Assembly: GCA_029548445.1 (NCBI GenBank) | Contig: JAKPNJ010000087.1 | Span: 1-42,881 of the forward strand | DNA from: Bacillota bacterium | GTDB taxonomy: Bacteria; Bacillota; Clostridia; Saccharofermentanales; UBA5734 | DNA: 42,881 nucleotides | Direction of reading: 5' to 3' | Part shown: positions 5,198-22,431 of the stretch, piece by piece | Layout: each line of letters opens with the position of its first letter | How positions within the stretch are numbered: position 1 is the first letter of the stretch | Position numbers and translations under genes: made by a program | The notes under the pieces: generated by a model | What the model was told of the DNA's origin: nothing | The model's input: the letters and a program-made list of their open reading frames with translations, nothing else | The model's database searches: none

Positions 5198-7363
5198 CTA
5201 TTTGATAAATTCGCTCGTTTCGGTATAAAGATAGACTTCTTGGGGGAGCGCCGCTTTCCGGAGCATATCCTCCGACTGAAAAACCGTTATCCTGTCCCCG
5301 GGGCCGATCCGAACCGGCGCTTTCCCGGACCCGGCTTCCTTGCGGACAGCCGCAGCGCCGATGGTCATGCGGCCTGCAAACTGCTGGACAGTTGCGTAGT
5401 CCAGCAGGACATGGTTCTTGCCGGTGGCCACGATCCGGATCGATCCGATCCGGCAGGACTCGGGGATCCAGGGAACCAGCCAGCGGGTGACAAAGCGCCG
5501 GCCCAGGTAGAACATGCTTTGCAGCTGTCCGACCAGCCTGTCGTACTGCTTTCTTTGCAGGAACTTCAGTTGGGTGGGTGTGTCGATCTGGTAGAACGCC
5601 ACCGCATGGTTCCTGGAGAATCTCTTCTTTGCAATGAGACCGGTCACATAGGCAATCGCGGCCAGTCCGGCCAGGACGAGGAGAATGAACACCGACCACT
5701 TGATCCACCAGGAAATGTCGGCGATGTCCAGCAGGACCGTATGGTCGGCCTGTTCATGGGGACGGTCCGTCTTCAGCCGCATGGACACCCGGATCTGTCC
5801 CACCTGGGTTAAAGGCATGAACGGATGCATTTCAGGCTGGAGGAGAAAAACGCCCTCCGCTGCGTCCCGCCTGGCGGAAAGCCGGGCCCCTCCGCTGTCG
5901 AGAATGTCCAGGGTCATCCGGGCCACCTCTTCGGGCGTCGCCCGGACACCTTCGATATAGGGGACCAGGCGGATCGGCGGTGTCGACCCCAGCGCTCCGT
6001 ATGAGGATCGCCATACCCCCCCGATTTCGTCCCGCAGCTCGATCTTTCGGACATCGAAAACTTCGAACTGGATCTCCTGCTCCGTCCGATAGAAGTCCTC
6101 GATCTCCGCTGTGGCCCGGATTGACATGGGTCCCTTCTCCAACTCGAAATGGACGGAGGGATCATCGAACGTCCGCGTGACCCCATTCTGTTCGACAACG
6201 ATCCGGTAGCGGAGGGCATCCGGCATCAGGTCCGCCGGAATGACGCGGCCTGATACGGCATCCGTGAACTCAAGCCGCAGGGAGAACCGGTCTCCCATCC
6301 GGAAGACGGCGGTATCCGGATCCGTGACAACCACGTCGTTCTGGAGGATTTGGATGCGCGAGAAGACCGCCGGCTCATACAGGACCTCGATGGCCTGGGG
6401 ATCGACGTCCCCCGAGAAGTGCACTTCAACGTCTCCGGGAGGAATGACATCCTGCAGGTCCTTCGGAAAGACCTGGGCCAGGCACCCGAAGATCATGCCC
6501 GCCGGACTTTCCATCCGGTAGATGTCTTCGGCGCTGTACTCCATGGAGACCCCGCCGATGGTGACATTGGAAACGCCGATGGCCCTGTTTTGCGACAGGA
6601 TGACCAGTTTCCTCAAGCTTAGTTGGTTCCGGAAGAGGATGCTGTCTTCCCTGGCCTCGAGATACCGGGCACTGGCCCTGGCCCGGCCGCTGACCAGGTC
6701 CGCGATTTCCTGCATCCGCGCGACGATTTCGTCGGCTTGCGACTGGTAGGCAAAGAATCCATTCTCCGGTTCGGACTGGAATATGGCCGCATCCGACCCG
6801 ATGGCGAAATAGGCGACCCGGGGGGTTACCTCCGGAACGACAGCGGTCCTGGCGAACTCCTTCAGCCGGCGCTCGACCTGTGCCGGGTCCTCGGCCCTGT
6901 CCCTGGACCTCTGCATGATGCCATCGGACAGGACGATCAGCCAGCATTCGGTATTGGGCAGGATCCGTTTCTTCTGATCCCTGAATACGTCCATGGCGGT
7001 TTGCACCGCTTCATAGGGCGTATATCCCCCTCCCTCCGGCGCATACCGGAGCGCGTCGATGGCGGACTGCCTGTCCTCCTGGATTGGAACCTCCACGGCC
7101 GTATCGGGTTTGCCCATACGGGTAACATACAGGATGTCCTGGCGGTCCAGCAGGGCGCACAGGGTCTGGAGCGCATAATTGGCCTGGTCGCTCTTGCCTT
7201 CCTGCTGCATCGATCCGGAATCGTCATAGACGATGGATATAAAACGCTGCGGATACAGGAAAGCGGCGGACACGGGTACACGGGGACACAAGGCGAGCAG
7301 GACGAGCACCAGGGTCAGCGCCTGGAAAACTGGATGGCCTCCCTGTCTCAGACTCCGCTCCAT
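5198..7363 (-). CDS. Exported von Willebrand factor A domain protein with C-terminal TM segment and cytosolic tail
   Basis: Signal peptide (FQALTLVLVLLALCPRVPVSAA), MIDAS motif FISIVYDDSGSM, later TM WWIKWSVFILLVLAGLAAIAYVTGLI followed by about 130 aa of tail. Confidence 0.85.
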   Translation of the reverse strand: MERSLRQGGHPVFQALTLVLVLLALCPRVPVSAAFLYPQRFISIVYDDSGSMQQEGKSDQANYALQTLCALLDRQDILYVTRMGKPDTAVEVPIQEDRQSAIDALRYAPEGGGYTPYEAVQTAMDVFRDQKKRILPNTECWLIVLSDGIMQRSRDRAEDPAQVERRLKEFARTAVVPEVTPRVAYFAIGSDAAIFQSEPENGFFAYQSQADEIVARMQEIADLVSGRARASARYLEAREDSILFRNQLSLRKLVILSQNRAIGVSNVTIGGVSMEYSAEDIYRMESPAGMIFGCLAQVFPKDLQDVIPPGDVEVHFSGDVDPQAIEVLYEPAVFSRIQILQNDVVVTDPDTAVFRMGDRFSLRLEFTDAVSGRVIPADLMPDALRYRIVVEQNGVTRTFDDPSVHFELEKGPMSIRATAEIEDFYRTEQEIQFEVFDVRKIELRDEIGGVWRSSYGALGSTPPIRLVPYIEGVRATPEEVARMTLDILDSGGARLSARRDAAEGVFLLQPEMHPFMPLTQVGQIRVSMRLKTDRPHEQADHTVLLDIADISWWIKWSVFILLVLAGLAAIAYVTGLIAKKRFSRNHAVAFYQIDTPTQLKFLQRKQYDRLVGQLQSMFYLGRRFVTRWLVPWIPESCRIGSIRIVATGKNHVLLDYATVQQFAGRMTIGAAAVRKEAGSGKAPVRIGPGDRITVFQSEDMLRKAALPQEVYLYTETSEFIK

Positions 7364-7911: not shown

Positions 7912-10209
7912 TCATTTTTCGGTCCGGAATCCGATGGGATTCGACATCCGGACCTTGGCTCTCTTGTTCTCCTCTTCCTTCTGGATTTCCTGGATCGCCT
8001 GCAGGACATCGTCCGTTTCCATCGTCCGCAAGGCCTCCGGGTCCAGCTGGTTCGTCCGGATCACCCTTTCCGCCAGCTTGGCTGTAGCCCGTTCCACCAG
8101 GTTCCGGACATACCGGCCGTTGCCGAAGTCCTCGTCGCTTTTCCGGAGCGGGAGGGACTGGAAATGCCGCTGGATTTCCTGCTCGGCGCCTTCCGAGATG
8201 CGGATCGAGGGTCCGGCCAGTCGATGGAATATCTGGACGAGCTCGCCGGAAGTGTAGTCCGGAAAATCGATGTAGTGGGCGACACGGCTGTTCATGCCGG
8301 GATTCGACTGAAGCATGGACTTCATTTCGTCCCGATATCCGGCCAGGATGACGACCGTGTCATGCCGGTGGGCTTCCATAAAGGAAATCAGGGTGCTGAT
8401 TGCCTCCTTGCCGTAGGCGTCCCGTTCGTCGAGCATCAGGGAATAGGCTTCATCGATGAACAGGACCGATCCGACAGCCTTTTCACAGGCGCGGGCGGTC
8501 AGCTTGGCCGTATGACCCATATAGGCGCCGATGAGGTGCTCCCGGGAGACCTCGAAGAACTCCCCGTGCTTCAGGAGACCCAGTTCCTTGAAAATGCGGC
8601 CGAGCAGACGCGCCACGGATGTCTTGCCGGTGCCCGGATTGCCCGTGAAGGCCATGTGCAGGCTGTTGTCCCGGGCGAGGCCGCCAGTTTCCTGGATCAG
8701 GCGGTTCCATTTCTGGAACCGGGCGATTTCGAGCACCTTCTTCTTGACCTCGTCCAGTCCGATGAGCTGGTTCAGTTCTCCCTCGGCGGTATCGACACCC
8801 GGTTTCATCCTCTCCTTCACGAGACCGGACAACACGTTCCGGACCGAGGTCCGGGATTCCTCGGCGGAGTCGGACTTGAGATTCCGGCTGGCCAGGAACC
8901 GATAGGCCAGTTCCCTTGCGATCTTGTCGGCTGTCTCATACTGATAGAAGCGGCCGTCCGACCGTTCCTGGTCGATCAGGCTCCGGACCAGGGATCGGCA
9001 GTCCTCGTCGGTATCCAGTTCGATGTCAAATTCCTTGAGCCTTTTTCGTACATGCTGATACAGCTCCTCGTCGCCGGGAATGACGATTCGGACAGGTTCG
9101 AGAAAGAATCGGTCCGAAAGCTTTCTCCTCAGCTTTTCGAAATATCCTTCATCATCGGACAGCAGCAGGAAGACCATGACATTTTTGTCTTCCTGGCGGT
9201 ACAGCCGCTCGATCACCAGGTCCAGCGCCTCGAGTCCCCGGGTCGAATCCGCCGGAAGGGGGACGATACAGACCGATCCGTGGCGCTTCGAGAAGGTCTC
9301 CTCGAGCTGCCGACCGATCTCGGTCTTCCCGTTTTGCAGTTCTTCCCAATCGATATCGATGGTGCGAATCGGATCCATCCTGGCCGAGTCCAGGACATGA
9401 TACTCACCCAGGATTGTCCGCAACAGATGGTAGGCCGGATCCAGGGTCAGGCCCGGTGCCGATTGGACCAGGAGGTGGGGTACGCAGTTCTTTCGACGCT
9501 CCGGGGGGACCTGGGCCAGGGCGGCCGCAATCCTGCCAAGGGTTCGGGCGAACCCCTCGAGCCCGGGAACGCGCTCCAGGAGCCGAAGCTGGGATGCAAC
9601 GCCATCCTGGGAGGGAGTCGCAACGGGCTGGCCGGGCAACTCCTCGGCCCTTTCCGGCTCGTCCGGACTCTCGACAGGAACGGGCGGTTTCGCCTTCCCG
9701 GGAGGCTCCGCGTTCCCGGGAAGTTCCGGCGGAATCTCGATCCCCGGCTCGGCCCCCTTGAGGGATCGAAGGAATGCGTCGGTCTCGTTCCGCAGTTCCT
9801 TCGGGAGATAGCCCGAGCCGCACAGGGTCAGGAGATCGGGCAGGTCGTCCGGGGCGACCTTGAGGATGCGGACATATACCTCCTGCGGCGCCAATTCCAG
9901 GCGATCACTTATCCGGCCGCGGAATAGGCCGGTATCGGGCAGCAGGAGGGAGTCCATTGGCGCCCCATGCGAATCGGGCGACCCGGGCAGGACCAGGAGA
10001 AAGTGGTGGGTGTCGACTGCCCGATGCAGGACGAACAGGCGCCCTCCCTCTTCCTTCAGGTCGAAGGGAAGCGCATCCACTACAAGGTCGCGAAACTGGA
10101 ATGTTCGGTTCAGGAGATTGTTGACCCTGGGGATTCGGATACTGTCCTTTGAGATGCGAATGACGAGGCGTACGATTCCTTGGTGATCCGGTCCCGGCTG
10201 CTCCGTCAT
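7912..10209 (-). CDS. CbbX/SpoVK-type AAA+ ATPase with ~450-aa N-terminal extension
   Basis: Walker A FTGNPGTGKTSVARLLG, Walker B SVLFIDEAYSL, sensor VVILAGYRDEM, C-terminal FGNGRYVRNLVERATAKLAERV. ORF track starts at 10215; ATG at 10209 has better RBS spacing from gggag. Confidence 0.9.
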   Translation of the reverse strand: MTEQPGPDHQGIVRLVIRISKDSIRIPRVNNLLNRTFQFRDLVVDALPFDLKEEGGRLFVLHRAVDTHHFLLVLPGSPDSHGAPMDSLLLPDTGLFRGRISDRLELAPQEVYVRILKVAPDDLPDLLTLCGSGYLPKELRNETDAFLRSLKGAEPGIEIPPELPGNAEPPGKAKPPVPVESPDEPERAEELPGQPVATPSQDGVASQLRLLERVPGLEGFARTLGRIAAALAQVPPERRKNCVPHLLVQSAPGLTLDPAYHLLRTILGEYHVLDSARMDPIRTIDIDWEELQNGKTEIGRQLEETFSKRHGSVCIVPLPADSTRGLEALDLVIERLYRQEDKNVMVFLLLSDDEGYFEKLRRKLSDRFFLEPVRIVIPGDEELYQHVRKRLKEFDIELDTDEDCRSLVRSLIDQERSDGRFYQYETADKIARELAYRFLASRNLKSDSAEESRTSVRNVLSGLVKERMKPGVDTAEGELNQLIGLDEVKKKVLEIARFQKWNRLIQETGGLARDNSLHMAFTGNPGTGKTSVARLLGRIFKELGLLKHGEFFEVSREHLIGAYMGHTAKLTARACEKAVGSVLFIDEAYSLMLDERDAYGKEAISTLISFMEAHRHDTVVILAGYRDEMKSMLQSNPGMNSRVAHYIDFPDYTSGELVQIFHRLAGPSIRISEGAEQEIQRHFQSLPLRKSDEDFGNGRYVRNLVERATAKLAERVIRTNQLDPEALRTMETDDVLQAIQEIQKEEENKRAKVRMSNPIGFRTEK

Positions 10210-10243
10210 TTCCATTCTCCCGTCGTTGTCTCATTCTTTAATC

Positions 10244-10272
10244 TTTATACCAATTGACACCCGGATGGTCAA
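10244..10272 (-). promoter_or_regulatory. Sigma70/SigA-type promoter for the AAA+/YbjN/vWA/tubulin block
   Basis: Minus strand TTGACC-17 bp-TATAAA (-35 at 10267-10272, -10 at 10244-10249), directly upstream of the AAA+ start and downstream of the NACHT stop. Confidence 0.6.
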
Positions 10273-10305
10273 TGGAAGCCTGCGATGGATCGACATAAGA
10301 ACCAT

Positions 10306-13269
10306 CTAAGAAACATCGATCCACCCGGGTTCATCCACCGAAACGAATGTGAGTGCTTCAACAGGTACATATGCGCTGTACTTAAAGGCATTCAAATGGT
10401 CATTCTCATTGTGATTCAGATAGAACTCAGTCCACCACTCGAGTAGGCGTGGCAGTTGTTGCCCTTTGGGGTTAGGTGGCATCATTTTCTCAATTATCCC
10501 GTGCAGCAAAGACTCATTCGTCTCAGTATCATTAGCCTCTCTACGAAAACCATCAAAAATATCAAGCAGGGGTTCGTATTCATGATATCCCCAATCTATC
10601 AGTAACTGCATGGCTTTCTCTAAAATCGGACGAGCTGCCAAACAAGTCAGTCTCTTCTCATAGAATATAGCCAGTTCCTTCTCGCAGCGATTTTCATGAT
10701 GTAAAGCATGCAAAGAGTCAACCGAATATCGAAAAGCAAGTATGATGCAAAGGACTGGCAACGTCAGGTCAAAGTCAAGACCTGTCGGTTTCTCATGACA
10801 CATGATACTGAATGCTCCTGCATAAGATTGACTGTAACTGATTTGTAGATCAAAACGAATATCAGTTTGCGGGGCGCTGCAAAAGAAAAGTCGAATCATA
10901 CGAAAAGTCGCAATTTGGATCTCGTTCCATAGGCTTCGTATACTATGTCTTGCATCCGGGAAACTGGCAGAAGCAAGCAAATAACATTCGACGAAATGGG
11001 TGTCCAATCCCCAGTATGTGGTGTTGTATATCTCCTCGAACGGCCTATTTTCAAATTTGCGAAATAACGGGTCCAAAAAATCGGATCGAACATCAAGGAT
11101 TTCAAACTTCCTAATCGTAGGCGATTTTTCGCTGGATACTATTGAAATCTCTTGTGCATTGATAATACTATTCGGTGCCGGAGGAGACTCAATCCACTTG
11201 TACGAGAATATTCTGGTTCCACTCATCCATTTCCTTAAGACAAGTCGGGTTGCCGGGTTGGCGATAACCTGGGTTGCCTTGCCTTCGCCTGGTTTTGAGC
11301 AGTTCGGGTTATACTCGATACGAAGTGAATCCTGAACCCCAAGCACTGTCAGTTCATCGAGTGCCTCCTGCACCAAGGCTTTGGCATCCTCATACTGATC
11401 CCAGACCATTGAATCATCCAGCGGCAGGGTAACGGACAACCGCTCGAGATGGAAGGCAGCGAGAGACCGAAATTCCCGGACCGGGTTGCCGACGAGGTTC
11501 AGGACTCGCAGGTCCTGCAGCTCCGGAAGGGCTGGGATTTGGGCAATCCGGTTGTTCTCCAGGTCCAGTTCCGCGATATTGCCGAAACGAGGAATGAGGT
11601 CGAGTGTGTCGAGACCGCGGCCGGACAAGTCCAGGATCCCATCGCGGGCCAGGTCGAAGGCGTCGTCTGCATCGAGCCGGATTCCGCCCAACTCGATCGA
11701 TTCGACTGCCAGGACATAATCGAGAATGCTTCTTGCAGTCAATGGCGCCGCGTCGGACAGGACCAGGTCAGGCCTGCCGACAATGGCCGAAAGAAAGGAT
11801 TCCTCCTCCGTCATCCGCGGGCTGTCAATCGACAACACAAGGTCGTTCCGAACCGACTCATTTCGATGGAGGGCCTTCGCATATAAGCCCGGAAGATCCG
11901 GCAGGCCCTGCCTTTCGATCCAAGCATATCGGTCCTGAAAAGTGAGTCTGGCATTCGCAAGATAATCGGCCATAAAGAATTGGTAGAGGATCCGGTGCTG
12001 GAATTCCAGTCGATCCTCGCCGCACACCCGCATAAGGTTGCGGGTAACGAGACTGATACGGCCTATATGGTTCAAGGGATCCAGGGAAGCGGCTTCTTCC
12101 CTGGACAGGCTGTATTCCTGCCGTTCGGCCATGTGCGCGATGCAAGCCCGAAGATATGCCAGCGATTTCTCCCGATAGGCCTCCAGATTGTCCGGCATCT
12201 CGCGTTCGAGTCTCACAAGAATCCTGTGTTCTCTCGGAATCCAGTACTCATTGACCATGCGGTCGATCATGTCAAAGACATGATCCCGGGTCATGTCACG
12301 ATCGCTGCAGACAGAAAAGAAGATGTCGGCGTATTGGATCAGGAAGGGTATCCGAAACACCGGGCAATCCGTCGACCGCAGATACCGGCGCATCCTGGCG
12401 ACATTCTTTCGGAGCGGTGTACCGATTCTCGGGAGGACTGGGTCTTCAAAGACCCTGTTGTCGCAACGGCGATACAAGTTCATGATCTGCCGATTGTCAA
12501 ACTCATCAATATCAAACAGGGCAAATCCGGGCCGTCCGGCGATGGGATCCGCGACCCGGGATGCATTCGACCGAAACGGTTCCGCCCGGGAGGAAATGAA
12601 CAACTGGGCCAGCTTTTCGCCGACCCTTCGATCATCGTGAATGAAGGTTCGGATCCGATCGAACAGGACTTCGGCCTCTCCCACCTCGTCCAGCTCCCGG
12701 ATCTCGTCGAATCCGTCCAGGAATACGCGCACCTCGGGCGCTGTCGATTCCCGAATCATGTCCCGGAGGATGGCCAAATGCGCATCGAAAGTCGTTCCGA
12801 TCGCATCCAGGGTCATGAAAATGACGCCGTGGTTCGCGAGGGTGTCCCGATCGCTGCGCCGCACCCATTTCTTCCGAAGCCGGAAGGCGAGCTGCTGCAT
12901 CAGGATCGATTTCCCGATGCCGCATTCACCGAGGATAAAGACCAGAGGCTCATGCCGGATCAGTCGCATGAACTGCCTGAACCCCAGTACATCGCCGCTT
13001 CGCAGGTTTTCCCTGTAAGCCTTGGGAGAAGACCGGATCCGGATCCGATGCGGAACATATCGCCTAAATTGTTTTCGGAATTCCCGACGCCCCTGCGGAT
13101 CAGTCAGCCGGCAGGCTTTCGCCAATCCGTCGAGAACTTTGCGCCGGCCCGTCAGGATACGCTGGACTACGAAAATCCCCCCATATATCAGGGGAACCCA
13201 TTCCAGAATCTGCAAAATGTTCGCGAGGTCCGACAGCTCGGGGGGCAGGATATGGAAGAAGCGAATCAT
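10306..13269 (-). CDS. NACHT-type STAND NTPase with leucine-rich repeats and distinct C-terminal domain (bacterial NLR-like)
   Basis: N-terminal hydrophobic segment WVPLIYGGIFVVQRIL; Walker A FILGECGIGKSILMQQLAFRL; Walker B VRVFLDGFDEIREL; LFISSRAEPF; LRR stretch LDLSGRGLDTLDLIPRFGNIAELDLENNRIAQIPALPELQDLRVLNLVGNPV; then about 330 aa with no recognised motif. Confidence 0.85.
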   Translation of the reverse strand: MIRFFHILPPELSDLANILQILEWVPLIYGGIFVVQRILTGRRKVLDGLAKACRLTDPQGRREFRKQFRRYVPHRIRIRSSPKAYRENLRSGDVLGFRQFMRLIRHEPLVFILGECGIGKSILMQQLAFRLRKKWVRRSDRDTLANHGVIFMTLDAIGTTFDAHLAILRDMIRESTAPEVRVFLDGFDEIRELDEVGEAEVLFDRIRTFIHDDRRVGEKLAQLFISSRAEPFRSNASRVADPIAGRPGFALFDIDEFDNRQIMNLYRRCDNRVFEDPVLPRIGTPLRKNVARMRRYLRSTDCPVFRIPFLIQYADIFFSVCSDRDMTRDHVFDMIDRMVNEYWIPREHRILVRLEREMPDNLEAYREKSLAYLRACIAHMAERQEYSLSREEAASLDPLNHIGRISLVTRNLMRVCGEDRLEFQHRILYQFFMADYLANARLTFQDRYAWIERQGLPDLPGLYAKALHRNESVRNDLVLSIDSPRMTEEESFLSAIVGRPDLVLSDAAPLTARSILDYVLAVESIELGGIRLDADDAFDLARDGILDLSGRGLDTLDLIPRFGNIAELDLENNRIAQIPALPELQDLRVLNLVGNPVREFRSLAAFHLERLSVTLPLDDSMVWDQYEDAKALVQEALDELTVLGVQDSLRIEYNPNCSKPGEGKATQVIANPATRLVLRKWMSGTRIFSYKWIESPPAPNSIINAQEISIVSSEKSPTIRKFEILDVRSDFLDPLFRKFENRPFEEIYNTTYWGLDTHFVECYLLASASFPDARHSIRSLWNEIQIATFRMIRLFFCSAPQTDIRFDLQISYSQSYAGAFSIMCHEKPTGLDFDLTLPVLCIILAFRYSVDSLHALHHENRCEKELAIFYEKRLTCLAARPILEKAMQLLIDWGYHEYEPLLDIFDGFRREANDTETNESLLHGIIEKMMPPNPKGQQLPRLLEWWTEFYLNHNENDHLNAFKYSAYVPVEALTFVSVDEPGWIDVS

Positions 13270-14042
13270 GGATCCCTCATGGCAGCGAAAGACTATGAAA
13301 CGGCGTTCATCGCTCCAATGACGATCGCACGACCCATCGGAACGAATCCAGCTTCTTGGGTCTTATTGTACCGTATAAGGCGTGCTACTGCGAGACGCAA
13401 TCAAACGAAGAACCCAGCCTGCCGATACACGCCGATGCTCAATCCCCTCTACGCGGGGCAAAGAAAGACTACGCTTCTAATAGCATTTCTCTGAATCCGA
13501 GTGCAAGGACGGGGCATTGCAGTCACCCACCCTTTCACGAACGGCCTTGCTCAAGCCAGATACGCCCATGATAGCCGGTTCGGTAACCCTTCTTCATGTA
13601 ACAATCCTCACATCCTGTTGCTCCATCAGGTATATGTTACAGAATGATGACAGCCTTTGCCGCTTGCTTTATTGCCGTATCCATTGTCCGGATAAGCCTT
13701 TGTGACCGTCTATCCAGGGAGGAAGTCCCGATGAAAGGAGGTCCAGCCACAACCGGTCAGGCCAGAACAAGGCATGGCGTAATCAGGAACTTGCAGCACA
13801 TTGCGAAAGGACGTTGAGAATCCGTTCAGACACAATTGATTCCTGACACGGCGGTGAGGCTCCCCTGCTGACGAATCCGAGATAAGGCGGACAGTCCGTC
13901 AGCAACAGAGTACCCAAGCGACTCGAATTCAATCCGATCATCCGATGCGATGAACTATCGACTGTCCCACATAGGGCAGGCGTGCCATTCCGTCCGCATA
14001 TCAAGGCGAATGAGAAACTACTGATTGGGAGGCAAGGAACCG

Positions 14043-15860
14043 ATGGGGAAAGGCCCTGACCAACCAAGCATCCAGGAACTCGAGGGATTGGCGGAAGAAT
14101 ACGATACCCTCATGGAAACAAAGGAGGAAGAGAACGAGAAGACACCGAGTTTTGACGAACTGATCCGGAAGGTGTCTCGAATCCCCGGATCAGCTAGGTG
14201 TGTGGAAGTCCTGGTCGAACTGGACAGGATTCTCGGCCAGATGCCCGAGGAACAGCGCCTCCAGAATTGCCCGGGATTCCTGGTCCGGCTCCGGCCCAAG
14301 GGGATGGACATCAACTCCCTCTATGAGGCCATGCATGCCCTCAATGTCAGGCACAAGGTCCTGAAGCCGCCGGTGTCGAAATTCCCGTTTGAACTCGATA
14401 TGGATTGGGCCCGCTTCGAGAAGGATCCCCGGGACTGCCATACGGGTCTCCTGTTCGCAAGGATCAACCACGGATCGGCCCTGGCGATCTTCGAGATTCC
14501 AAGGGACATCGTGACCCGTCTCTCCGTGCTGGACGCGGTCATGGCCAAGTACGCGACATTAAGGGGAAAGTTCACCTACTGTATCGTCATCCAGGACCCC
14601 CTGGATCCCGAGGAACTCCAGCAGATCCGATCGGTTCTGGACAAGCACCTGTACACGATCACCCTGGACATCCAGCCGACCGACGAGGAACTGGTTGGCG
14701 CTATCCTGGACGGAGCCAGGGAATCCGGAGCATCATTGACAAGCGAGTCCGAACTGCGAAACCAGCTGATCGAATCCCTGGCCAGGGAGAAGGAGGGCAA
14801 GGATTTCAACTTCTCCACTTTCGCGGAACGGGCGACTATGGTCCTGCTGTATGGCGACCTGGCCCGGTCCCATGCTCCTATGGAGGCAGCACCCCTGCCG
14901 GAAGACCATATCCAAAAAAGAGAGGAGATCGCCAAAACCCGCCTGCAGGGAAGCCTTCGGAAGCTGGATCGGTTGGCAGGGCTTGCGGATCTGAAGCAGA
15001 AGGTCCGTGAGATCCTGATGTTCCACCAGTGGCGCCAAATGGCAGGCGTCGAGGATGAGGACGTCGGAAACCCGAGCCTCCACATGGTCTTTCTGGGAAA
15101 TCCGGGTACGGGGAAAACCCTCGCGGCCCGGCTGATCGGGGAGATATTCCGGGAGGCCGGCATCCTGACACAAGGGGACTTCCATGAGGTCACTCGAACG
15201 GACCTGGTCAGCCAATATATCGGACAAACGGAGCAGAAAACATTGGAAGTATGCAATAAGGCGATCGGATCCGTGCTCTTCATCGACGAAGCATACGCCC
15301 TCTACTCGGAGGAAAAGGGCAGGGACTTCGGAGAACAGGTCATCAACACCCTTCTTCCCTTCATGGAAGAGCATCGCAGGGACACGGTGGTCATCCTCGC
15401 GGGATACACAAACGAGATGCTGCGGCTTCTCTCGATGAATCCGGGACTTCGGAGCCGAATCGCCCACACCATCGCATTTGCAGACTACATGGCCGAGGAA
15501 CTGACCGAGATCTTCCTCCAGCAGATGGGGGAGGCCCTGACCCTGGCGAACCCGGCCAGAAGCCGGCTCGAACGGCACTTCGAACGGATCGCCAGCCTCA
15601 CCCGCACGGATTCCAGAATCGGGAATGGGCGGTATGCCCGAAACCTCTATGAACGGTCCATCCTGAAGATGGCCGAACGGGTTGTCCGGGATGGCATCCA
15701 GGATGCCGAGAGACAACGAATGCTGGTTGAGGCGGATATCGAAGCCGCTTCCCAGGAACTCCTCAAGGGGGTGCTGGATCCGAATCTCAGAATCATCCGG
15801 CCCATCGGATTCCAGGGGCTGTCCCAGGAATCCACGGAACGTGACAACCGGATCGCCTAG
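14043..15860 (+). CDS. Second CbbX/SpoVK-type AAA+ ATPase with a related N-terminal extension
   Basis: Walker A FLGNPGTGKTLAARLIG, Walker B SVLFIDEAYALYS, VVILAGYTNEM, IGNGRYARNLYERSILKMAERV. RBS gggagg at 14027 favours ATG 14043 over the tracked 14025. Confidence 0.9.
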   Translation: MGKGPDQPSIQELEGLAEEYDTLMETKEEENEKTPSFDELIRKVSRIPGSARCVEVLVELDRILGQMPEEQRLQNCPGFLVRLRPKGMDINSLYEAMHALNVRHKVLKPPVSKFPFELDMDWARFEKDPRDCHTGLLFARINHGSALAIFEIPRDIVTRLSVLDAVMAKYATLRGKFTYCIVIQDPLDPEELQQIRSVLDKHLYTITLDIQPTDEELVGAILDGARESGASLTSESELRNQLIESLAREKEGKDFNFSTFAERATMVLLYGDLARSHAPMEAAPLPEDHIQKREEIAKTRLQGSLRKLDRLAGLADLKQKVREILMFHQWRQMAGVEDEDVGNPSLHMVFLGNPGTGKTLAARLIGEIFREAGILTQGDFHEVTRTDLVSQYIGQTEQKTLEVCNKAIGSVLFIDEAYALYSEEKGRDFGEQVINTLLPFMEEHRRDTVVILAGYTNEMLRLLSMNPGLRSRIAHTIAFADYMAEELTEIFLQQMGEALTLANPARSRLERHFERIASLTRTDSRIGNGRYARNLYERSILKMAERVVRDGIQDAERQRMLVEADIEAASQELLKGVLDPNLRIIRPIGFQGLSQESTERDNRIA

Positions 15861-15898: not shown

Positions 15899-18478
15899 AT
15901 GATGCATCGATCGGAACTGAGAGCCCACTCGGTCCATGGCACGGGAAGTGCCTGTACCGTGGAGCGATTGGCGGCATGGGCGGCGGGGCAAGGGCTGGAG
16001 GCCCTTGCCATCGCCGACTACCGGAGCACGCTGGCAGCATCGGAGATCTCCCGGTTGTTGCCCGAGATCAGGAAACGGGAGAACCCGCTCAAGCTGGTCA
16101 TCGGGACCGTGCTGACCATCCATGACGACTCCGAGACCATGGACGGGTTTGATATCGTCCTTCTGGCCCGGAATGCCGCCGGTTTTCGCAACCTGAACGG
16201 CCTTCTCTCGGCAAGCGGGACCGATCGCGGCACAAAAAGTGCGAGGCTTGTCCGCAGGGACATCCAGGATCGGCGGGAGGGGCTCCTGGTCGGGGCCTCC
16301 TCCTTCCGGGGGGAGTTCTCGCATCCGGGGACCGGGCAGTACGGCGATACGGAACTCGAGTCCCGTATTGGGTTCTATGACTACATCGAGATCCTGCCCC
16401 CTGTCTTTGGCCCGGACTTCACGGACCCCGCGTCCCTGATCCGGATTGCGGACCGCTTGGGGGTTCCGGCAGTCGCGGTGGGAGACCAGCGGGCGGTGGA
16501 CGAAGCCGACCTGCTGGCCTTAAAGATTCTCTACGAGAACCAGGTTTTCAAGTCCTCCGCCTATCCCCTGGAGGGCTTCCGTAATGGGCGTCCCGGTATC
16601 GGATGGACAACCGGCGCCATGCTGAAGGCGATGTCCTTCCTGGGAGCCAGGACAGCCTATCGGATCGTCGTGGAGAATCCCCGAACGATCGCCAGTCGGA
16701 TCGAATCGTTCGATCCCATGGAAGAAGGGGGAAGCGAGCAGCAAAGTGCCCCAATCCGTGAAACAGCCCTCGATGGCATGCTGCGGGAAGCGCTGGTGCG
16801 GTATGGAAATCCCCCGCCTCCCGAAGTCACGGAACGGCTTCGGAACGAGCTCGGGTGGATCGGCCGGAATCGGCTTGCAGCAGGCATCGAATGGGTTTGG
16901 AATCTATCGTCCGCAGCCCGGCAGGATGGGCTGCCGCTCGAACTGGGCGGGGTGTTGGGAGGCACCCTGGCCGCGAGCCTGCTGGGCCTGACGGAGGTCA
17001 ATCCCCTGGCGACCCACATTCTCTGCCCTGCTTGCAGGAAAGCCTGGTTCCCGTCCAGTCCGGAGTATCGCAAGGCCGCGGACCTGGTATGCCCGATCTG
17101 CGGGGGTCCCTGCCGGGACGAAGGGGATGATCTCCCCTGGGCCCTGTTTCCCGAGTCAATCAACGCAATCGAAAGCCTCCTGAAGGTCAGGGGGCCCCTG
17201 GATTGCATCCCCCCGCTGGTTGAGCGTCTGCGGGAGTGCGACGGCGTCCAGGAGGTCTTCCGGGTCCTGGGCCAGTACCGGATTGGGTATATCCATGCCT
17301 ATCATCTCGTCAGCAGGATTCCGGCAGAAGAAGATTTCTGCCGAGATCCGCTGCTGGATGCCTTCGATATCGACGATGTCATCGAGAGAGTCGCCGCGAT
17401 GTCATCCTCCATGCGGGTCCATCCGAAGCGCCTGGCCGTAGTGCCTTCCGGAGTCAATCCCCACGGCCTCTCCCCTATTTATCAAACGGTCTCCGGCCAC
17501 CAGGCCCTCCTGATGGACGCCGTTGCAGCCAATGGGACGCCAACCAGGATGGATGTGGAGCGGGATCTCTCCCTGACACTGGTTCACGACCTCATGTTGC
17601 GGACCGGCGTGGAACCCGGGGATCTGCGATCGGCCGGCACTGACCCGATTGCCATTTCACTGTTCGAATCCGAACAGGCCCTGGGGATCGACCTGTCGGC
17701 TCTCGGGTGTCATGTCGGCACACTGGGAATTCCGGTGTTCGGTTCCCGGAGCGCCAGAAAAGTGCTCAAGGAGTACCCAGTCTACGACTTCCCGGATCTT
17801 GTGGGGATGTGCGGTGTTCTGGATGGATTCTGGGTCTATCCGGATTCCAGGGTCGAGTTCATTCGGCACCTGTCCGATCGAGCGGAGGGCATCGCCGCAA
17901 CCGTCGAGGACGCGCATCGGTGCCTGGTTCAACACGGTGTAGCCCCAGCACAAGCGCTGGACCTCATTCGCCTGATCCGGAGGGGAGTGGCGAGAACCGA
18001 CGAGGAATCGGAGGAACTTGGGATGTCCCTCCGGTCGATTCGATGGCCGTCCTGGATGGCCGAATTCTACCTGAGCATCAACTCCCTGATGGGCAAGGCC
18101 GCCGCCATCCAGCAGGCGCGCCGCGTGTTGGCACTCGCATGGTTCAAGATCCACTCACCCGAGGCCTACTACCGATCCGTGCTCGGCCGCTGTCCTGGCT
18201 TCGGAACAAGGGAGATCGGCCTTGTACGGAAAGGCCCTCAGGCCATTCTGGATGAACTTCGGAGAACCAGTCTCGTCCAGACCTCGGGACAAGTCAATGG
18301 AAAGCGCGAAGCCCTGGCCATCGCCTACGAAATGATCTTGAGAGGAGTCGAAATCGATGGAGAGAAAGACGAATGGAGCGCAGCCTGCCGGCAAGGGAAA
18401 GGAAAAGTCTATCGAGCCGAACTCGGGAAAAGCCCGGCAACTAACCGAAGGGTTCAGAACCTTCCTGAAGCGCTTTGA
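15899..18478 (+). CDS. PolC-type DNA polymerase III alpha homolog, exonuclease-less and predicted catalytically inactive
   Basis: Colinear with PolC: eroded PHP domain (IADYRST, GFDIVLLARNAAGFRNLNGLLS, GLLVGASSFRGE, FYDYIEILPP), zinc ribbon LCPACRKAW..CPICGGPC, LTEVNPLATHILCP, VHPKRLAVVPSG, VGTLGIPVFGSR, FKIHSPEAYYRS. Catalytic PDIDLNFS equivalent is absent. Confidence 0.8.
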   Translation: MMHRSELRAHSVHGTGSACTVERLAAWAAGQGLEALAIADYRSTLAASEISRLLPEIRKRENPLKLVIGTVLTIHDDSETMDGFDIVLLARNAAGFRNLNGLLSASGTDRGTKSARLVRRDIQDRREGLLVGASSFRGEFSHPGTGQYGDTELESRIGFYDYIEILPPVFGPDFTDPASLIRIADRLGVPAVAVGDQRAVDEADLLALKILYENQVFKSSAYPLEGFRNGRPGIGWTTGAMLKAMSFLGARTAYRIVVENPRTIASRIESFDPMEEGGSEQQSAPIRETALDGMLREALVRYGNPPPPEVTERLRNELGWIGRNRLAAGIEWVWNLSSAARQDGLPLELGGVLGGTLAASLLGLTEVNPLATHILCPACRKAWFPSSPEYRKAADLVCPICGGPCRDEGDDLPWALFPESINAIESLLKVRGPLDCIPPLVERLRECDGVQEVFRVLGQYRIGYIHAYHLVSRIPAEEDFCRDPLLDAFDIDDVIERVAAMSSSMRVHPKRLAVVPSGVNPHGLSPIYQTVSGHQALLMDAVAANGTPTRMDVERDLSLTLVHDLMLRTGVEPGDLRSAGTDPIAISLFESEQALGIDLSALGCHVGTLGIPVFGSRSARKVLKEYPVYDFPDLVGMCGVLDGFWVYPDSRVEFIRHLSDRAEGIAATVEDAHRCLVQHGVAPAQALDLIRLIRRGVARTDEESEELGMSLRSIRWPSWMAEFYLSINSLMGKAAAIQQARRVLALAWFKIHSPEAYYRSVLGRCPGFGTREIGLVRKGPQAILDELRRTSLVQTSGQVNGKREALAIAYEMILRGVEIDGEKDEWSAACRQGKGKVYRAELGKSPATNRRVQNLPEAL

Positions 18479-18713
18479 TGGAAAGGCGAAGCATGAGGAG
18501 TTCAAGGAATTCCTGGAGTCGTATTCTGAAATGCTCATCGGAATGCATGGACGTCTCGTTGAACACAATGCCGACTTGAAGACGATCCGGGAACGCCTCG
18601 AGCACACGGAACAAAGTCAGGCAAGGCTTGGAAAAATGCTGGTTGGCCTGTTGGTCCTTTCCGCTGTGGCCGTGGTCGTCGCCATGACGGCGCTCCTCGT
18701 CTCACTCGGATGA
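18357..18713 (+). CDS. Small coiled-coil protein with C-terminal TM anchor
   Basis: 118 aa; RBS gaggag before ATG; helical HGRLVEHNADLKTIRERLEHTEQSQARLGKMLVG then LLVLSAVAVVVAMTALLVSLG. Overlaps the preceding CDS by 122 bp in another frame. Confidence 0.6.
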   Translation: MERKTNGAQPAGKGKEKSIEPNSGKARQLTEGFRTFLKRFDGKAKHEEFKEFLESYSEMLIGMHGRLVEHNADLKTIRERLEHTEQSQARLGKMLVGLLVLSAVAVVVAMTALLVSLG

Positions 18714-18756: not shown

Positions 18757-19668
18757 GTGCGAATGGAACTGGATCCCAGGATCAAGGAAATCAGGGACTA
18801 CTACGTAAAAAGGCGCAACACTCGAGAGGACACCCTGGCGGCGGGCCTGGGCATGGCCGGCGAATGGCTCGATCAAATGGACGATATCGACCATCTGCCG
18901 GAGCCGCTCAAAGAAGCCTTCCGGCTCGCGTTCCCAAGCATGACGGAATCGGACATCGAGCACCTGGGCGAGGCAGGTAAAGCCGGCGTACTGCAGGCCT
19001 GGAAGGGCAAGTTGTTCGAGGTCATGGTCCGGGACCAACTGAATGCCGGCGTGCCTGTGGGCGAGCTGCGGCTGGCAGTCGGCGAGAAGGCCGTACTGGC
19101 CGAATCCCTCAACGAACCTGGCTGGGATCTCCGGATCCTGGACTGGCGGGGTGTGGAAACCGGCAAGTACCAACTCAAGGCAACCGTATCCGAGGAGCAT
19201 GTCCGGGAATCGCTCCAGCGGTATCCCGACTTCCGGATCATTGCCACGGACGATGTATCGATGGAGGATATCCTGCCCGGGGGACACACGAACTCGAGCC
19301 TGGCTGGCCAGGTGTCCGATGCCATTGATGACCTGGCAGCCCATGACCTGCAGGACATCCTCGGGGACCTGCTTCCCTACCTCCCCTTTATCCTGATCAT
19401 CGGGTCGGAAGGATTGCGGGCCGCGATCGGACGGAAGCCCCTGGTCAGGGCTTTCGTCGACGCGGGAGTCCGCGGCGCCAAATGTCTCAGCGCCCGGACG
19501 GTTGGATTCCTGGTCCTGTCCATAGGACTCGGGCCGCTCTCCATTCCCGCTTCCATGGCGACCCGATATGGCATCGACCGGGCGCTCTGGACGTTCCGTG
19601 AGAAGGCATTGCTCAGGCAAAAGACAGAGGAGATCCGCGGATTGCCGAAGTTTCGGCGATCCCCTTGA
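18757..19668 (+). CDS. Putative PD-(D/E)XK nuclease-like protein with hydrophobic C-terminal region
   Basis: Motif spacing WKGKLFEVMVRDQL...PGWDLRILDW...GKYQLKATVS matches E..., D..., QxK of the restriction-endonuclease fold; hydrophobic LPFILIIGSEGL and FLVLSIGLGPLSIPASMA. Start GTG 18757 or ATG 18763. Confidence 0.65.
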   Translation: MRMELDPRIKEIRDYYVKRRNTREDTLAAGLGMAGEWLDQMDDIDHLPEPLKEAFRLAFPSMTESDIEHLGEAGKAGVLQAWKGKLFEVMVRDQLNAGVPVGELRLAVGEKAVLAESLNEPGWDLRILDWRGVETGKYQLKATVSEEHVRESLQRYPDFRIIATDDVSMEDILPGGHTNSSLAGQVSDAIDDLAAHDLQDILGDLLPYLPFILIIGSEGLRAAIGRKPLVRAFVDAGVRGAKCLSARTVGFLVLSIGLGPLSIPASMATRYGIDRALWTFREKALLRQKTEEIRGLPKFRRSP

Positions 19669-19735
19669 TCTGTCAATTTTCGTGTGGCATTGTCAATTAA
19701 AAGTCATCATTTCTGATATGACATCGGAGGTGCAG

Positions 19736-21517
19736 ATGGACGGACTCATGGACGGCTTCATTGAACTGACGAAAACGATGGACCCCGGCACCCAGGTGCG
19801 CGTGACCTGCACGGGCCAGGCGAACAAAGAAATCAGCGGCGAATTGGTTGGATGCCAGTGGAACCTCATCATCCTGCAAACGGGTTCGTCCCGGGTCGCG
19901 ATTCGGGCGGACCAGGTCGTCTCGCTGGAGTACCCGAACGGCCATGCGATCGGCCAGATGGAGTCCATACCGGTCAGATCCCTATCCAGGCAGGAAGTTC
20001 CGGTTGGTCCCGTGGGACCGGGTCCCTCTCCAGTCGCTTCAGCATCCGGTGTCCATTCGGAAAACACGGAGCCCAGGAATGAAAATGAAGAGGAACGTCA
20101 GGCCTACAATCCCGTCCGGCTGGACCAGCAGCTGCTGTTCAGGATCGGGCAGGAATTGAAGCTGAGTTGCCACGACCGACACGGCCGCAAGTGGGAGCAC
20201 CTGCAGGACTCGATCCGGTACCTGATGAAGGTCCACGAATTTGATGACCGCTTCGGGCGATCGGCTCCCCTGATCAAGAAACTGGACGGGATCCTCGCCA
20301 AGTGCAGTGCCCCGTCCCTGTCTCTCCTGCGCGCCTATCTGCTCCACCTGTCCGGGAAGAAAGGCGACGCGCATCGCTATCTCATGGAACTCGGACTTCG
20401 GAAGGAACTGATCGACCTGGTCGTTGTCTGCGAAGGGCCGGAAGGCTTCCTGCCGGAGTACATGACGCCATATCTCTTCGAATCCCTCTCCATTCCGGGT
20501 CCGATTCAATGGATGATCGAGAATGATCCGCTGCCAGGCAGGCCGAGAACGGAGGAGGATACATGGCAACGGCTTGCTGGTCGGATTGTGGAACTCCAGG
20601 CAAGCATAAGCCAGCCATCAGTCCTGGGCGATTCCCATGTTCTTCTGGATTCCCTGGGCAGGTTGTCCTGCAGTACCGGAATCGGACGAATCATGCCCAG
20701 TACGACGATCAGTCGCAACACCTCCTATGCGCGGCATGTGGAACCGCTGAAGCCGGTTCCGGGAGGCCCGGACAATCCGATTCATTCATTCTTGAGCGAC
20801 CGTGGCCTTATCATCAAGGATACGATCCAGAATCCGACCTTCTACCTCTATGACAAACCGGATGTCATGAAGATCATCGAGTACATCGGGCTGCACTACG
20901 AGTGGATTCTGCCGGTCTATCGGGCCATTCGGAGCTGCATGCAGGATGGAGGCAAGTTCACCTTGAACTGCACCGGCTACAACAACAAGATCATCACAAC
21001 CTGCATGCAGTTCTGTTCCCTACTGCAGCAGGCGGGTTTCATGACGGGATACAAGTATTCGAACAATCCCCATATCCAAATATCCGGAAAAGTCTCCTCT
21101 GCGCCTGAGTTCCAGGGCCTGATGTCCGGAGGGTGGCTGGAGTACTATGCCCATTCGATGATCGAGGAAACGTTGCTGGAGATCGAAGCCAGCAAGGGAC
21201 CCTACGAATGGACGGCTACCCGCAATGTCTCGGCGGTGCTTCGGGATGGGACTGAAGTCGAATTCGACATCCTCGTTCTTGCAGATGGCATTCTGTACTG
21301 GGTCGAGGCCAAGACAGGGGTGTACAAGGATTCGATTACCAAGTACAACTGCCATGCCACGCATTTGGAGATGGATCGGTCCAGGGCATTCCTCCTGGCC
21401 ACAGAGGCTACGAGTGTCGACATCCGGAAGGACCACGGGTTGATCACTGTGGTCGACCTGACGACTTTCCGGGAGCGCTTTCGGTCCAGTGTATCAAGGG
21501 GGCTTCGGATGGCGTAG
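19736..21517 (+). CDS. LSm-like N-terminus, helical middle, Card1/DUF1887-like PD-(D/E)XK nuclease C-terminus
   Basis: RBS ggaggt precedes ATG 19736 (tracked start 19568 is an extension). N-term GTQVRVTCTGQANKEISGELVGCQWNLIILQTGSSRVAIRADQVVSLEYP; C-term GGWLEYYAHSMI...VEFDILVLADGILYWVEAKTG. Confidence 0.7.
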   Translation: MDGLMDGFIELTKTMDPGTQVRVTCTGQANKEISGELVGCQWNLIILQTGSSRVAIRADQVVSLEYPNGHAIGQMESIPVRSLSRQEVPVGPVGPGPSPVASASGVHSENTEPRNENEEERQAYNPVRLDQQLLFRIGQELKLSCHDRHGRKWEHLQDSIRYLMKVHEFDDRFGRSAPLIKKLDGILAKCSAPSLSLLRAYLLHLSGKKGDAHRYLMELGLRKELIDLVVVCEGPEGFLPEYMTPYLFESLSIPGPIQWMIENDPLPGRPRTEEDTWQRLAGRIVELQASISQPSVLGDSHVLLDSLGRLSCSTGIGRIMPSTTISRNTSYARHVEPLKPVPGGPDNPIHSFLSDRGLIIKDTIQNPTFYLYDKPDVMKIIEYIGLHYEWILPVYRAIRSCMQDGGKFTLNCTGYNNKIITTCMQFCSLLQQAGFMTGYKYSNNPHIQISGKVSSAPEFQGLMSGGWLEYYAHSMIEETLLEIEASKGPYEWTATRNVSAVLRDGTEVEFDILVLADGILYWVEAKTGVYKDSITKYNCHATHLEMDRSRAFLLATEATSVDIRKDHGLITVVDLTTFRERFRSSVSRGLRMA

Positions 21518-21714: not shown

Positions 21715-22431
21715 ATGAAGCCGGACCGGGAGCTGGTCGTCGAAACCCTGATGCAGGAGCACCAGACTGCGCACCAGCGCGTCTTCAACCAGGTCAAGCT
21801 GTACGAGTCGACGAACATCCGGATCCTGATGCTGATGGGGGTTCTGCTGTACTTCGGGATATCCGGGTTTGGCCTTCTGGATGACCGGTACCTCTTCCAT
21901 ATCACCAACATCGTCTTCCTCGTCATCATCCCCTTTATCGCCACGGCCTCGGTGGCCATTACCGCCGCGAACCTGGTCAAGATCATGGTCCTCGGCCTCT
22001 TCCTGAAATCGGTCGAGGACAAGGTCAACCGGGTCCTGGAGACCGAGGCGGTCCATTTCGGATTCGCGAAGGGCCAGGTCCTGGACTGGGAGAGATGGCG
22101 GCTCGAGGACGGGTATGCCAACCGTCGGAACATGATGTCCGAGCTGACATTTTCCGCCATCCTGGTCGTCACGTTCTTTCTCACCTCGGTCCTGGCCGTC
22201 GTCCTCCGTCTCCAGTTCCTGTTCGAGGCGGCGCCCGAATATGCGGTGTTCCCCCTGGTGGTGTCGTGCCTCAACGGCGTCCTGTTCATCGCCACTGCGA
22301 TCGTCTCCATCCTCCTGGTTGTCTCGAAGCGTCGGGAGGTCATGATTCGCACCGGCATCGTGCCGTCTCCCGATCCCGTCCCGGTTGTCCCGGGTGCTGC
22401 GCCTCCCGAACCCGACGGATCCGCCGGATGA
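21715..22431 (+). CDS. Multi-pass (about 4 TM) membrane protein of unknown function
   Basis: RBS ggagg; hydrophobic segments ILMLMGVLLYFGISGFGLL, IVFLVIIPFIATASVAITAANLV, LTFSAILVVTFFLTSVLAVVLRL, FPLVVSCLNGVLFIATAIVSILLVV. Confidence 0.7.
   Translation: MKPDRELVVETLMQEHQTAHQRVFNQVKLYESTNIRILMLMGVLLYFGISGFGLLDDRYLFHITNIVFLVIIPFIATASVAITAANLVKIMVLGLFLKSVEDKVNRVLETEAVHFGFAKGQVLDWERWRLEDGYANRRNMMSELTFSAILVVTFFLTSVLAVVLRLQFLFEAAPEYAVFPLVVSCLNGVLFIATAIVSILLVVSKRREVMIRTGIVPSPDPVPVVPGAAPPEPDGSAG

What the first reader, a model, noticed from the sequence alone, without database searches (positions are those of the whole stretch)
15899..18478. Catalytically eroded, exonuclease-less PolC paralog inside an AAA+/nuclease operon
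The protein aligns end to end by eye with the PHP-palm-fingers part of PolC. Pairs (recalled PolC / this protein): HVTLLAQNETGLKNLFKLVS / DIVLLARNAAGFRNLNGLLS; ITEVNPLPPHYVCPNCKH..CPRCG / LTEVNPLATHILCPACRK..CPICG; QHPGGIIVVPD / VHPKRLAVVPS; NVGTIGIPEFGTRFVRQML / HVGTLGIPVFGSRSARKVL; AYFKVHHPLLYYA / AWFKIHSPEAYYRS. The PDIDLNFS segment with two catalytic aspartates is replaced after DDLPWALF by PESINAIESLL. PHP ligands are lost (HLHT to RAHS, TDH to ADY). The exonuclease insert in the PHP domain is cleanly missing between LTIHDD and GFDIVLL. The C-terminal region with the clamp-binding motif is also absent. The four zinc Cys and the scaffold are kept, and the ORF is intact with a good RBS. That pattern suggests selection for a non-catalytic role such as a DNA/primer-terminus sensor, replisome decoy or scaffold, rather than decay. 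I know of no described immune or conflict system built on an inactive PolC.
Basis: partly seen in the sequence, partly recalled or inferred. Interest (0 to 1): 0.93.

Follow-up and report, generated by a model that had tools for sequence, protein, structure and literature searches.

The report
Dead DNA-polymerase copy in defence-like locus
A bacterium that already has a normal copy of its main DNA-copying enzyme (PolC) carries a second, stripped-down copy that has kept the enzyme's shape but lost its active site; it sits in a gene cluster that resembles bacterial immune systems, which suggests it acts as bait or scaffold rather than as an enzyme.

Summary
Window 15899-18478 (+) is an intact 859-aa PolC paralog. 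It has the PolC fold (Foldseek to 3f2b, E 2e-38), no NTD/OB, no exonuclease insert and no (HhH)2/clamp-binding end. Two of three catalytic Asp are lost (D552 remains), as are the SRGSVGSS and fingers motifs and 6 of 9 PHP ligands; all four zinc Cys remain. Loss is concentrated at the active site: invariant PolC columns are kept 20% there and 53% elsewhere (p 2e-6), which argues against neutral decay. The genome has a separate intact PolC. No ortholog turned up in the genomes sampled. One second case did: a 683-aa eroded, exo-less PolC in Anaerovibrio lipolyticus LB2005, which also has two intact PolCs. Both eroded copies lie in loci with a SpoVK-type AAA+, a vWA protein and a nuclease; none of 39 ordinary PolC loci does. 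Exo-less PolC is already described (Timinskas 2013). Inactive host enzymes as decoy effectors in AAA/vWA/tubulin conflict loci are already predicted (Kaur 2020). A dead replicative polymerase in that role was not found in the literature searched. Best reading: a polymerase-shaped bait or adaptor handled by the adjacent AAA+. The dead paralog is shown; the role is inferred.

The parts
15899..18478 (+). catalytically dead, exonuclease-less PolC paralog (859 aa; PHP + palm/thumb/fingers scaffold; residues 820-859 are probably an unconstrained tail)
14025..15860 (+). AAA2: SpoVK/CbbX-type AAA+ ATPase with a ~300-aa N-terminal extension, 38 bp upstream of the PolC-like gene
18357..18713 (+). 118-aa coiled-coil protein with one C-terminal membrane helix; own RBS (AGGAG just upstream of its ATG), overlaps the PolC-like 3' end by 122 bp
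   Evidence: sequence; frame composition and spacing
18757..19668 (+). 303-aa restriction-like protein, weak match to candidate defence family PDC-M72B (E 1.5e-6)
19730..21517 (+). 595-aa protein with a C-terminal PD-(D/E)XK nuclease domain resembling those of CARF/Card1 nucleases (weak, E 4e-6); no CARF domain shown
10306..13269 (-). 987-aa NACHT-like NTPase with leucine-rich repeats, divergent
   Evidence: weak: LRR_4 7e-5, NACHT 7e-4
7912..10215 (-). AAA1: 767-aa SpoVK-type AAA+, paralog of AAA2 (34% over 564 aa, N-terminal extension included)
5198..7363 (-). 721-aa vWA protein with apparent signal peptide and a membrane helix (vWA outside)
1762..5181 (-). 1139-aa Tubulin_2 (PF13809) protein with long C-terminal extension
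21715..22431 (+). 238-aa membrane protein at the edge of the locus; membership uncertain

Best explanation
The gene encodes a catalytically dead PolC kept for its shape. SHOWN by computation: PolC fold and descent; loss of the polymerase active site (2 of 3 Asp, phosphate-binding and fingers motifs), of most PHP ligands, of exonuclease, NTD/OB and clamp-binding parts; intact ORF; active-site-biased erosion; a separate intact PolC in the genome; position in a tight + strand array AAA2 - PolC-like - membrane coiled-coil - nuclease-like - nuclease, divergent from tubulin/vWA/AAA1/NACHT-LRR; a second, less eroded PolC in another bacterium in a SpoVK/MoxR/vWA/nuclease locus. INFERRED: the locus is a conflict (anti-phage or anti-element) system. 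The PolC-like protein is its polymerase-shaped bait or adaptor: it presents surfaces of host Pol III alpha to an invader protein that attacks or recruits the replicase, or to a replisome partner. The neighbouring SpoVK-type AAA+ loads or remodels it, as CbbX-type ATPases remodel their client. Engagement then frees the co-encoded nucleases and membrane protein to act.
For: Fold and homology. Motif losses and retained zinc Cys. Active-site columns kept 19/93 against 55/103 elsewhere, p 2e-6. Separate intact PolC. AAA2 38 bp upstream; membrane gene overlapping with its own RBS. Defence-like neighbours: padloc weak hits PDC-M72B and CARF-PDDEXK, NACHT-LRR, Tubulin_2 and vWA. Second case: Anaerovibrio lipolyticus L055, 683-aa eroded PolC beside MoxR-like AAA, vWA (DUF2201), DUF2779/Cas4-like nuclease, SpoVK AAA and IetA-like AAA, in a genome with two intact exo-less PolCs. 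None of 39 ordinary PolC loci from the same scan, most with 10 kb flanks, has any of these neighbours. SpoVK-type AAA followed directly by a C-family polymerase also occurs in about ten large phage or prophage contigs, with two polymerase types only 22% identical behind the same AAA lineage. Precedent for inactive host enzymes as decoy effectors in AAA/vWA and tubulin/vWA loci: PMC7159879.
Against: No experiment. No ortholog of the window protein, so selection is inferred from the pattern of loss, not from dN/dS. No named defence system matches; padloc hits are weak and partial. The two eroded PolCs differ: Anaerovibrio's keeps all three Asp and SRGSVGSS, so it might not be fully dead, and their common descent cannot be resolved (branch length about 10, long-branch join). 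Their loci share the kinds of gene, not orthologous sets. The SpoVK-type AAA domains are no closer to each other (about 41%) than to ordinary CbbX. IMG/VR files the Anaerovibrio region as a provirus, so that copy may belong to a mobile element rather than to host defence.
Confidence: 0.45

Rival explanations
1. Dominant-negative replisome poison: on activation the AAA+ releases the dead polymerase into the replisome, where it displaces PolC from shared partners and halts host (and phage) replication as an abortive response.
For: PolC scaffold with conserved core and zinc site but no catalysis; dominant-negative use of inactive enzymes is one mode proposed for such loci (PMC7159879).
Against: The parts through which PolC is held in the replisome (NTD, clamp-binding end, (HhH)2/OB) are missing in both eroded copies, so competition would be weak.
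Confidence: 0.2
2. Accessory (non-defence) partner of a mobile-element or host replication or repair module: SpoVK-type AAA plus a C-family polymerase-shaped protein works in replication or repair, with the inactive subunit as a structural scaffold (as ImuB is an inactive Y-family partner of DnaE2).
For: SpoVK-type AAA next to active-looking DnaE-type polymerases in about ten large phage/prophage contigs; inactive polymerase subunits are known scaffolds, e.g. ImuB (PMC12926913).
Against: The locus lacks other replication or repair genes; neighbours are vWA, tubulin-like, NACHT-LRR and nucleases; no such partner in hundreds of relatives.
Confidence: 0.14
3. DNA or primer-terminus sensor: the dead polymerase still binds primer-template DNA of invaders and signals through the AAA+ to the nucleases.
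For: Polymerase cleft fold retained; nuclease genes downstream.
Against: SRGSVGSS, GQHPGG and fingers motifs lost, thumb motif eroded, (HhH)2 and OB absent; net charge of the cleft region no more positive than in PolC.
Confidence: 0.1
4. Relic: a duplicated polC in the course of decay, still open by chance or recency.
For: Very long branch, no ortholog; many catalytic residues gone.
Against: About 7.5 stop-making changes expected for every 0.1 neutral changes per site; with d = 0.3 the chance of none is about 1e-10. Loss is concentrated at the active site. Frame-specific GC is coding-like (0.66/0.47/0.72). RBS present. A similar copy in a comparable locus elsewhere.
Confidence: 0.08

Closest known systems
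Exonuclease-less PolC (Clostridia/Negativicutes subgroup, Timinskas et al. 2013, PMC3919608)
   Same: PolC-type sequence without the exonuclease insert in PHP
   Different: Those are complete polymerases; the survey required an intact active-site region. The window protein has lost the active site, NTD/OB, (HhH)2 and clamp motif.
MoxR-vWA ternary and GAP1-N2 tubulin/vWA conflict systems with inactive host-enzyme effectors (Kaur et al. 2020, PMC7159879)
   Same: AAA+ and vWA genes, Tubulin_2 protein with long C-terminal extension, membrane vWA, and a catalytically dead copy of an enzyme whose active form is in the same cell
   Different: The window AAA+ are SpoVK-type, not MoxR; no VMAP/iSTAND, GAP1 or GTPase recognised; no PolC or other replicative polymerase is named as effector in that paper's text
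ImuB / inactive Y-family polymerases
   Same: Catalytically dead polymerase kept as scaffold for partners
   Different: Different polymerase family, clamp-binding retained, SOS mutagenesis cassette with DnaE2 and ImuA
IetA-type (IetAS) defence AAA+ plus effector pairs
   Same: AAA+ gene next to an effector-like gene; IetA-like AAA also in the Anaerovibrio locus (E 4e-32)
   Different: Window AAA+ only weakly IetA-like (1.4e-8 and 9.8e-10); partner is a PolC scaffold

Membership tests
C-family DNA polymerase, PolC group | PolC fold and sequence descent | tested here: met
C-family DNA polymerase, PolC group | three catalytic Asp | tested here: not met
   only the third Asp (D552) remains
C-family DNA polymerase, PolC group | SRGSVGSS and fingers dNTP-binding motifs | tested here: not met
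   GGVLGGTLA and SLMGKAAAIQQ instead
C-family DNA polymerase, PolC group | four-Cys zinc site in the polymerase region | tested here: met
   C376, C379, C398, C401
C-family DNA polymerase, PolC group | PHP metal site (nine ligands) | tested here: not met
   three of nine kept: H10, D40, D196
C-family DNA polymerase, PolC group | (HhH)2 and clamp-binding C-terminus | tested here: not met
   alignment ends before both
Exonuclease-less PolC (Timinskas 2013) | no Exo insert but intact polymerase active-site region | tested here: not met
   Exo absent, but active site lost (definition)
MoxR-vWA ternary conflict system (Kaur 2020) | MoxR-class AAA+ | tested here: not met
   window AAA+ are SpoVK/CbbX-type; a MoxR-like AAA is present only in the Anaerovibrio locus
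MoxR-vWA ternary conflict system (Kaur 2020) | vWA protein | tested here: met
   vWA 6e-5; homologous to vWA genes beside Tubulin_2 in L027 and L032
MoxR-vWA ternary conflict system (Kaur 2020) | VMAP or iSTAND third component | tested here: inconclusive
   weak NACHT/STAND-like NTPase with LRR at 10306-13269; no VMAP model tested
GAP1-N2 tubulin/vWA conflict system (Kaur 2020) | Tubulin domain with C-terminal extension plus membrane vWA | tested here: met
   Tubulin_2 E 3e-48; vWA with membrane helix; same pair in L027 and L032
GAP1-N2 tubulin/vWA conflict system (Kaur 2020) | GAP1 protein and GTPase | tested here: inconclusive
   no Pfam hit in the window or in the L027/L032 neighbours, so the test has little power
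Both Kaur 2020 classes | inactive copy of an enzyme whose active form exists in the same cell | tested here: met
Any of the above as anti-phage defence | protection against phage or plasmid | not testable with these tools
   needs experiment

The most novel reading that the evidence does not exclude
A previously undescribed kind of bacterial immune module in which a dead copy of the replicative DNA polymerase is the bait: it was recruited more than once from host PolC, is handled by SpoVK-type AAA+ ATPases, and guards the replisome against phage or element proteins that attack Pol III alpha.
Probability: 0.3. Interest if true: 0.92.

Novelty: new variant of a known kind. Interest (0 to 1): 0.7.

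Why it matters
Replicative polymerases are among the most constrained proteins in bacteria; the 2013 C-family survey describes the three catalytic Asp as absolutely conserved (PMC3919608). A PolC that has discarded catalysis but kept its fold and zinc site, beside AAA+, nuclease and vWA genes, would extend the idea of inactive host enzymes as decoys to the replisome itself. It would point to invader proteins that target Pol III alpha, and could be tested directly by using the dead protein as bait for phage factors.

Tried and rejected
Searches for close orthologs: family (23 genomes), order (188), class (391) and phylum (399) samples with the full protein or a discriminating fragment, viral contigs, plasmids and phages: only the window itself, ordinary PolCs, or the Anaerovibrio case. 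The one genome-wide scan used seeds from a block shared by the two eroded proteins; it returned 40 loci, 39 ordinary PolC and one eroded. The PolC-profile survey of 391 genomes listed only top hits, so it could not show eroded copies. Placing the window protein in a tree failed (branch about 10, saturated); joining it with the Anaerovibrio copy is suspect as long-branch attraction. Apparent phage PolCs without Exo (H18, H36) were looked at: H18/L004 is a bacterial contig (dxr, rseP, ispG beside a complete exo-less PolC) and was rejected as a relative of the finding. Descent from DnaE was rejected on scores. The N-terminal parts of AAA2 and the Anaerovibrio SpoVK AAA could not be shown homologous. 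No solved structure matched the 19730-21517 protein by sequence.

Full report
WHAT IS THERE. The ORF at 15899-18478 (+) is intact and encodes 859 residues. NCBIfam matches the PolC model NF001688 at 7e-71 but at 239 bits against a cut-off of 873; DnaE models match at 3e-14 or worse. Pfam sees PHP (7e-10) and DNA_pol3_alpha (3e-5). phmmer aligns residues 83-817 with the G. kaustophilus PolC structure 3f2b (1e-54). An AlphaFold2 model from a 28-row alignment has pLDDT 71.5 and pTM 0.66, and its Foldseek matches are PolC structures first (3f2b E 2e-38, TM 0.77 on the query) and DnaE next.

WHAT IS LOST AND KEPT. In alignments with the genome's own PolC and with 26 other PolCs the protein lacks the N-terminal/OB part, the exonuclease insert, and everything from the (HhH)2 region to the clamp motif. 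PDIDLNFS, SRGSVGSS, GQHPGG, SHGTDVW and KYMFPKAHAAAY are all gone; the third catalytic Asp survives (TRMD). Three of nine PHP ligands survive. The four zinc Cys, EVNPL..H, GTLGIP..G and many Gly/Pro/hydrophobic positions survive. Of columns at least 95% conserved in PolC, 19 of 93 in active-site motifs and 55 of 103 elsewhere are kept (p 2e-6; PHP columns are left out of this count because the exonuclease insert was misplaced there). A gene drifting freely would lose both classes alike.

NOT A PSEUDOGENE. Random point changes in this ORF make a stop in 2.9% of cases: 7.5 expected stops per 0.1 changes per site, and a chance near 1e-10 of none at 0.3. Codon-position GC is 0.66/0.47/0.72, like its neighbours. 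The last 40 residues are an exception: the next gene (18357-18713) starts inside with its own AGGAG, and its frame is the coding-like one there.

THE GENOME HAS A REAL POLC. G000:C69 encodes a PolC of about 1300 aa with PHP, Exo, all catalytic motifs and a QLDFFSL end.

THE LOCUS. On the + strand: SpoVK/CbbX-type AAA2 (38 bp upstream), PolC-like, a 118-aa coiled-coil membrane protein, a 303-aa protein weakly like candidate defence family PDC-M72B, and a 595-aa protein with a C-terminal PD-(D/E)XK domain like those of CARF nucleases. On the - strand: a Tubulin_2 protein, a vWA membrane protein, AAA1 (paralog of AAA2) and a NACHT-like/LRR protein. Tubulin_2 + vWA pairs recur in two other genomes of the same order (L027, L032), without PolC-like; a Card1-type nuclease lies beside the one in L027.

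A SECOND CASE. Searching viral contigs and then the genome collection with seeds shared with the first hit gave one more eroded PolC: Anaerovibrio lipolyticus LB2005 (L011 = L055; 683 aa), also without NTD, Exo and C-terminus, with PHP ligands lost, GQHPGG and SHGTDVW damaged and part of the thumb deleted, but with three Asp and SRGSVGSS still present. It lies beside MoxR-like AAA, vWA/DUF2201, SpoVK-type AAA, a DUF2779/Cas4-like nuclease and an IetA-like AAA. That genome has two further, complete exo-less PolCs. Without the window protein in the tree, the eroded copy groups with them and one other exo-less PolC in a fully supported set, so it is most simply a local descendant of resident PolC. 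The window protein is too diverged to place, so one or two recruitments remain open. None of the 39 ordinary PolC loci from the same scan has such neighbours.

A LEAD ON THE PARTNER. Among 77 SpoVK-type AAA loci from viral contigs, about ten large phage or prophage contigs carry the AAA directly before a complete C-family polymerase. Behind the same AAA lineage stand two polymerase types only 22% identical. Pairing of SpoVK-type AAA with Pol III alpha-like proteins thus recurs, though these phage contigs are related to one another. The simplest inference is that AAA2 acts on the PolC-like protein.

AGAINST THE LITERATURE. Exo-less PolC is known (6% of PolCs; PMC3919608). That survey discarded fragments without an intact active site, so copies like this one would have been missed. 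The 2026 survey discusses inactive Y-family and PolX proteins and inactive PHP domains; a search of its text found no inactive PolC (PMC12926913). Kaur et al. 2020 describe AAA/vWA and tubulin/vWA conflict systems in which inactive versions of cellular enzymes serve as presumed decoys or dominant negatives (PMC7159879). The window fits that grammar, but its AAA+ is of another class and no GAP1/GTPase or VMAP was recognised, so it is not filed as a member.

VERDICT. A dead PolC paralog kept for its shape: about 0.9 (inference from the evidence above). Part of a conflict-type locus: about 0.55. Bait or adaptor handled by AAA2: about 0.45, with replisome poison, non-defence scaffold and DNA sensor as rivals.

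Noticed in passing
L095:9896-14990, L109:9782-14118; also L097, L098, L099, L100, L104, L106, L107, L152: SpoVK-type AAA gene directly followed by a complete C-family DNA polymerase (DnaE-type) in large phage/prophage contigs, with two polymerase types only 22% identical behind the same AAA lineage.
   Followed up: partly
L055 (G947:C1) 9968-12019, and G947:C1 about 133465-135717 and 166626-168878: Anaerovibrio lipolyticus LB2005 carries three polC-type genes on one scaffold: two complete exo-less PolCs about 33 kb apart and one eroded copy in a MoxR/vWA locus.
   Followed up: yes
L027 and L032: Tubulin_2 + membrane vWA gene pairs with large membrane proteins in the same order; a Card1-type nuclease gene lies beside the L027 locus.
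   Followed up: partly
window 18357-18478: The membrane coiled-coil gene overlaps the PolC-like 3' end by 122 bp; frame composition suggests PolC-like residues 820-859 are unconstrained.
   Followed up: partly
L004 (MT836562.1): GenBank 'Bacteriophage sp.' contig that is bacterial chromosome (dxr, rseP, ispG, exo-less polC).
   Followed up: yes
L006 (NZ_CP045273.1 plasmid): A Priestia megaterium megaplasmid PolC keeps the polymerase active site and Exo but has lost PHP ligands (ELQTFS, TDVS) and carries an insert in the zinc-site loop.
   Followed up: no
window 13270-14024: 755-bp intergenic region between the two divergent arrays, a likely place for regulatory signals; not analysed.
   Followed up: no
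window 22500-42881: Right half of the contig looks like an ordinary sugar-utilisation region (ABC transporter, glycosidases, regulators).
   Followed up: no
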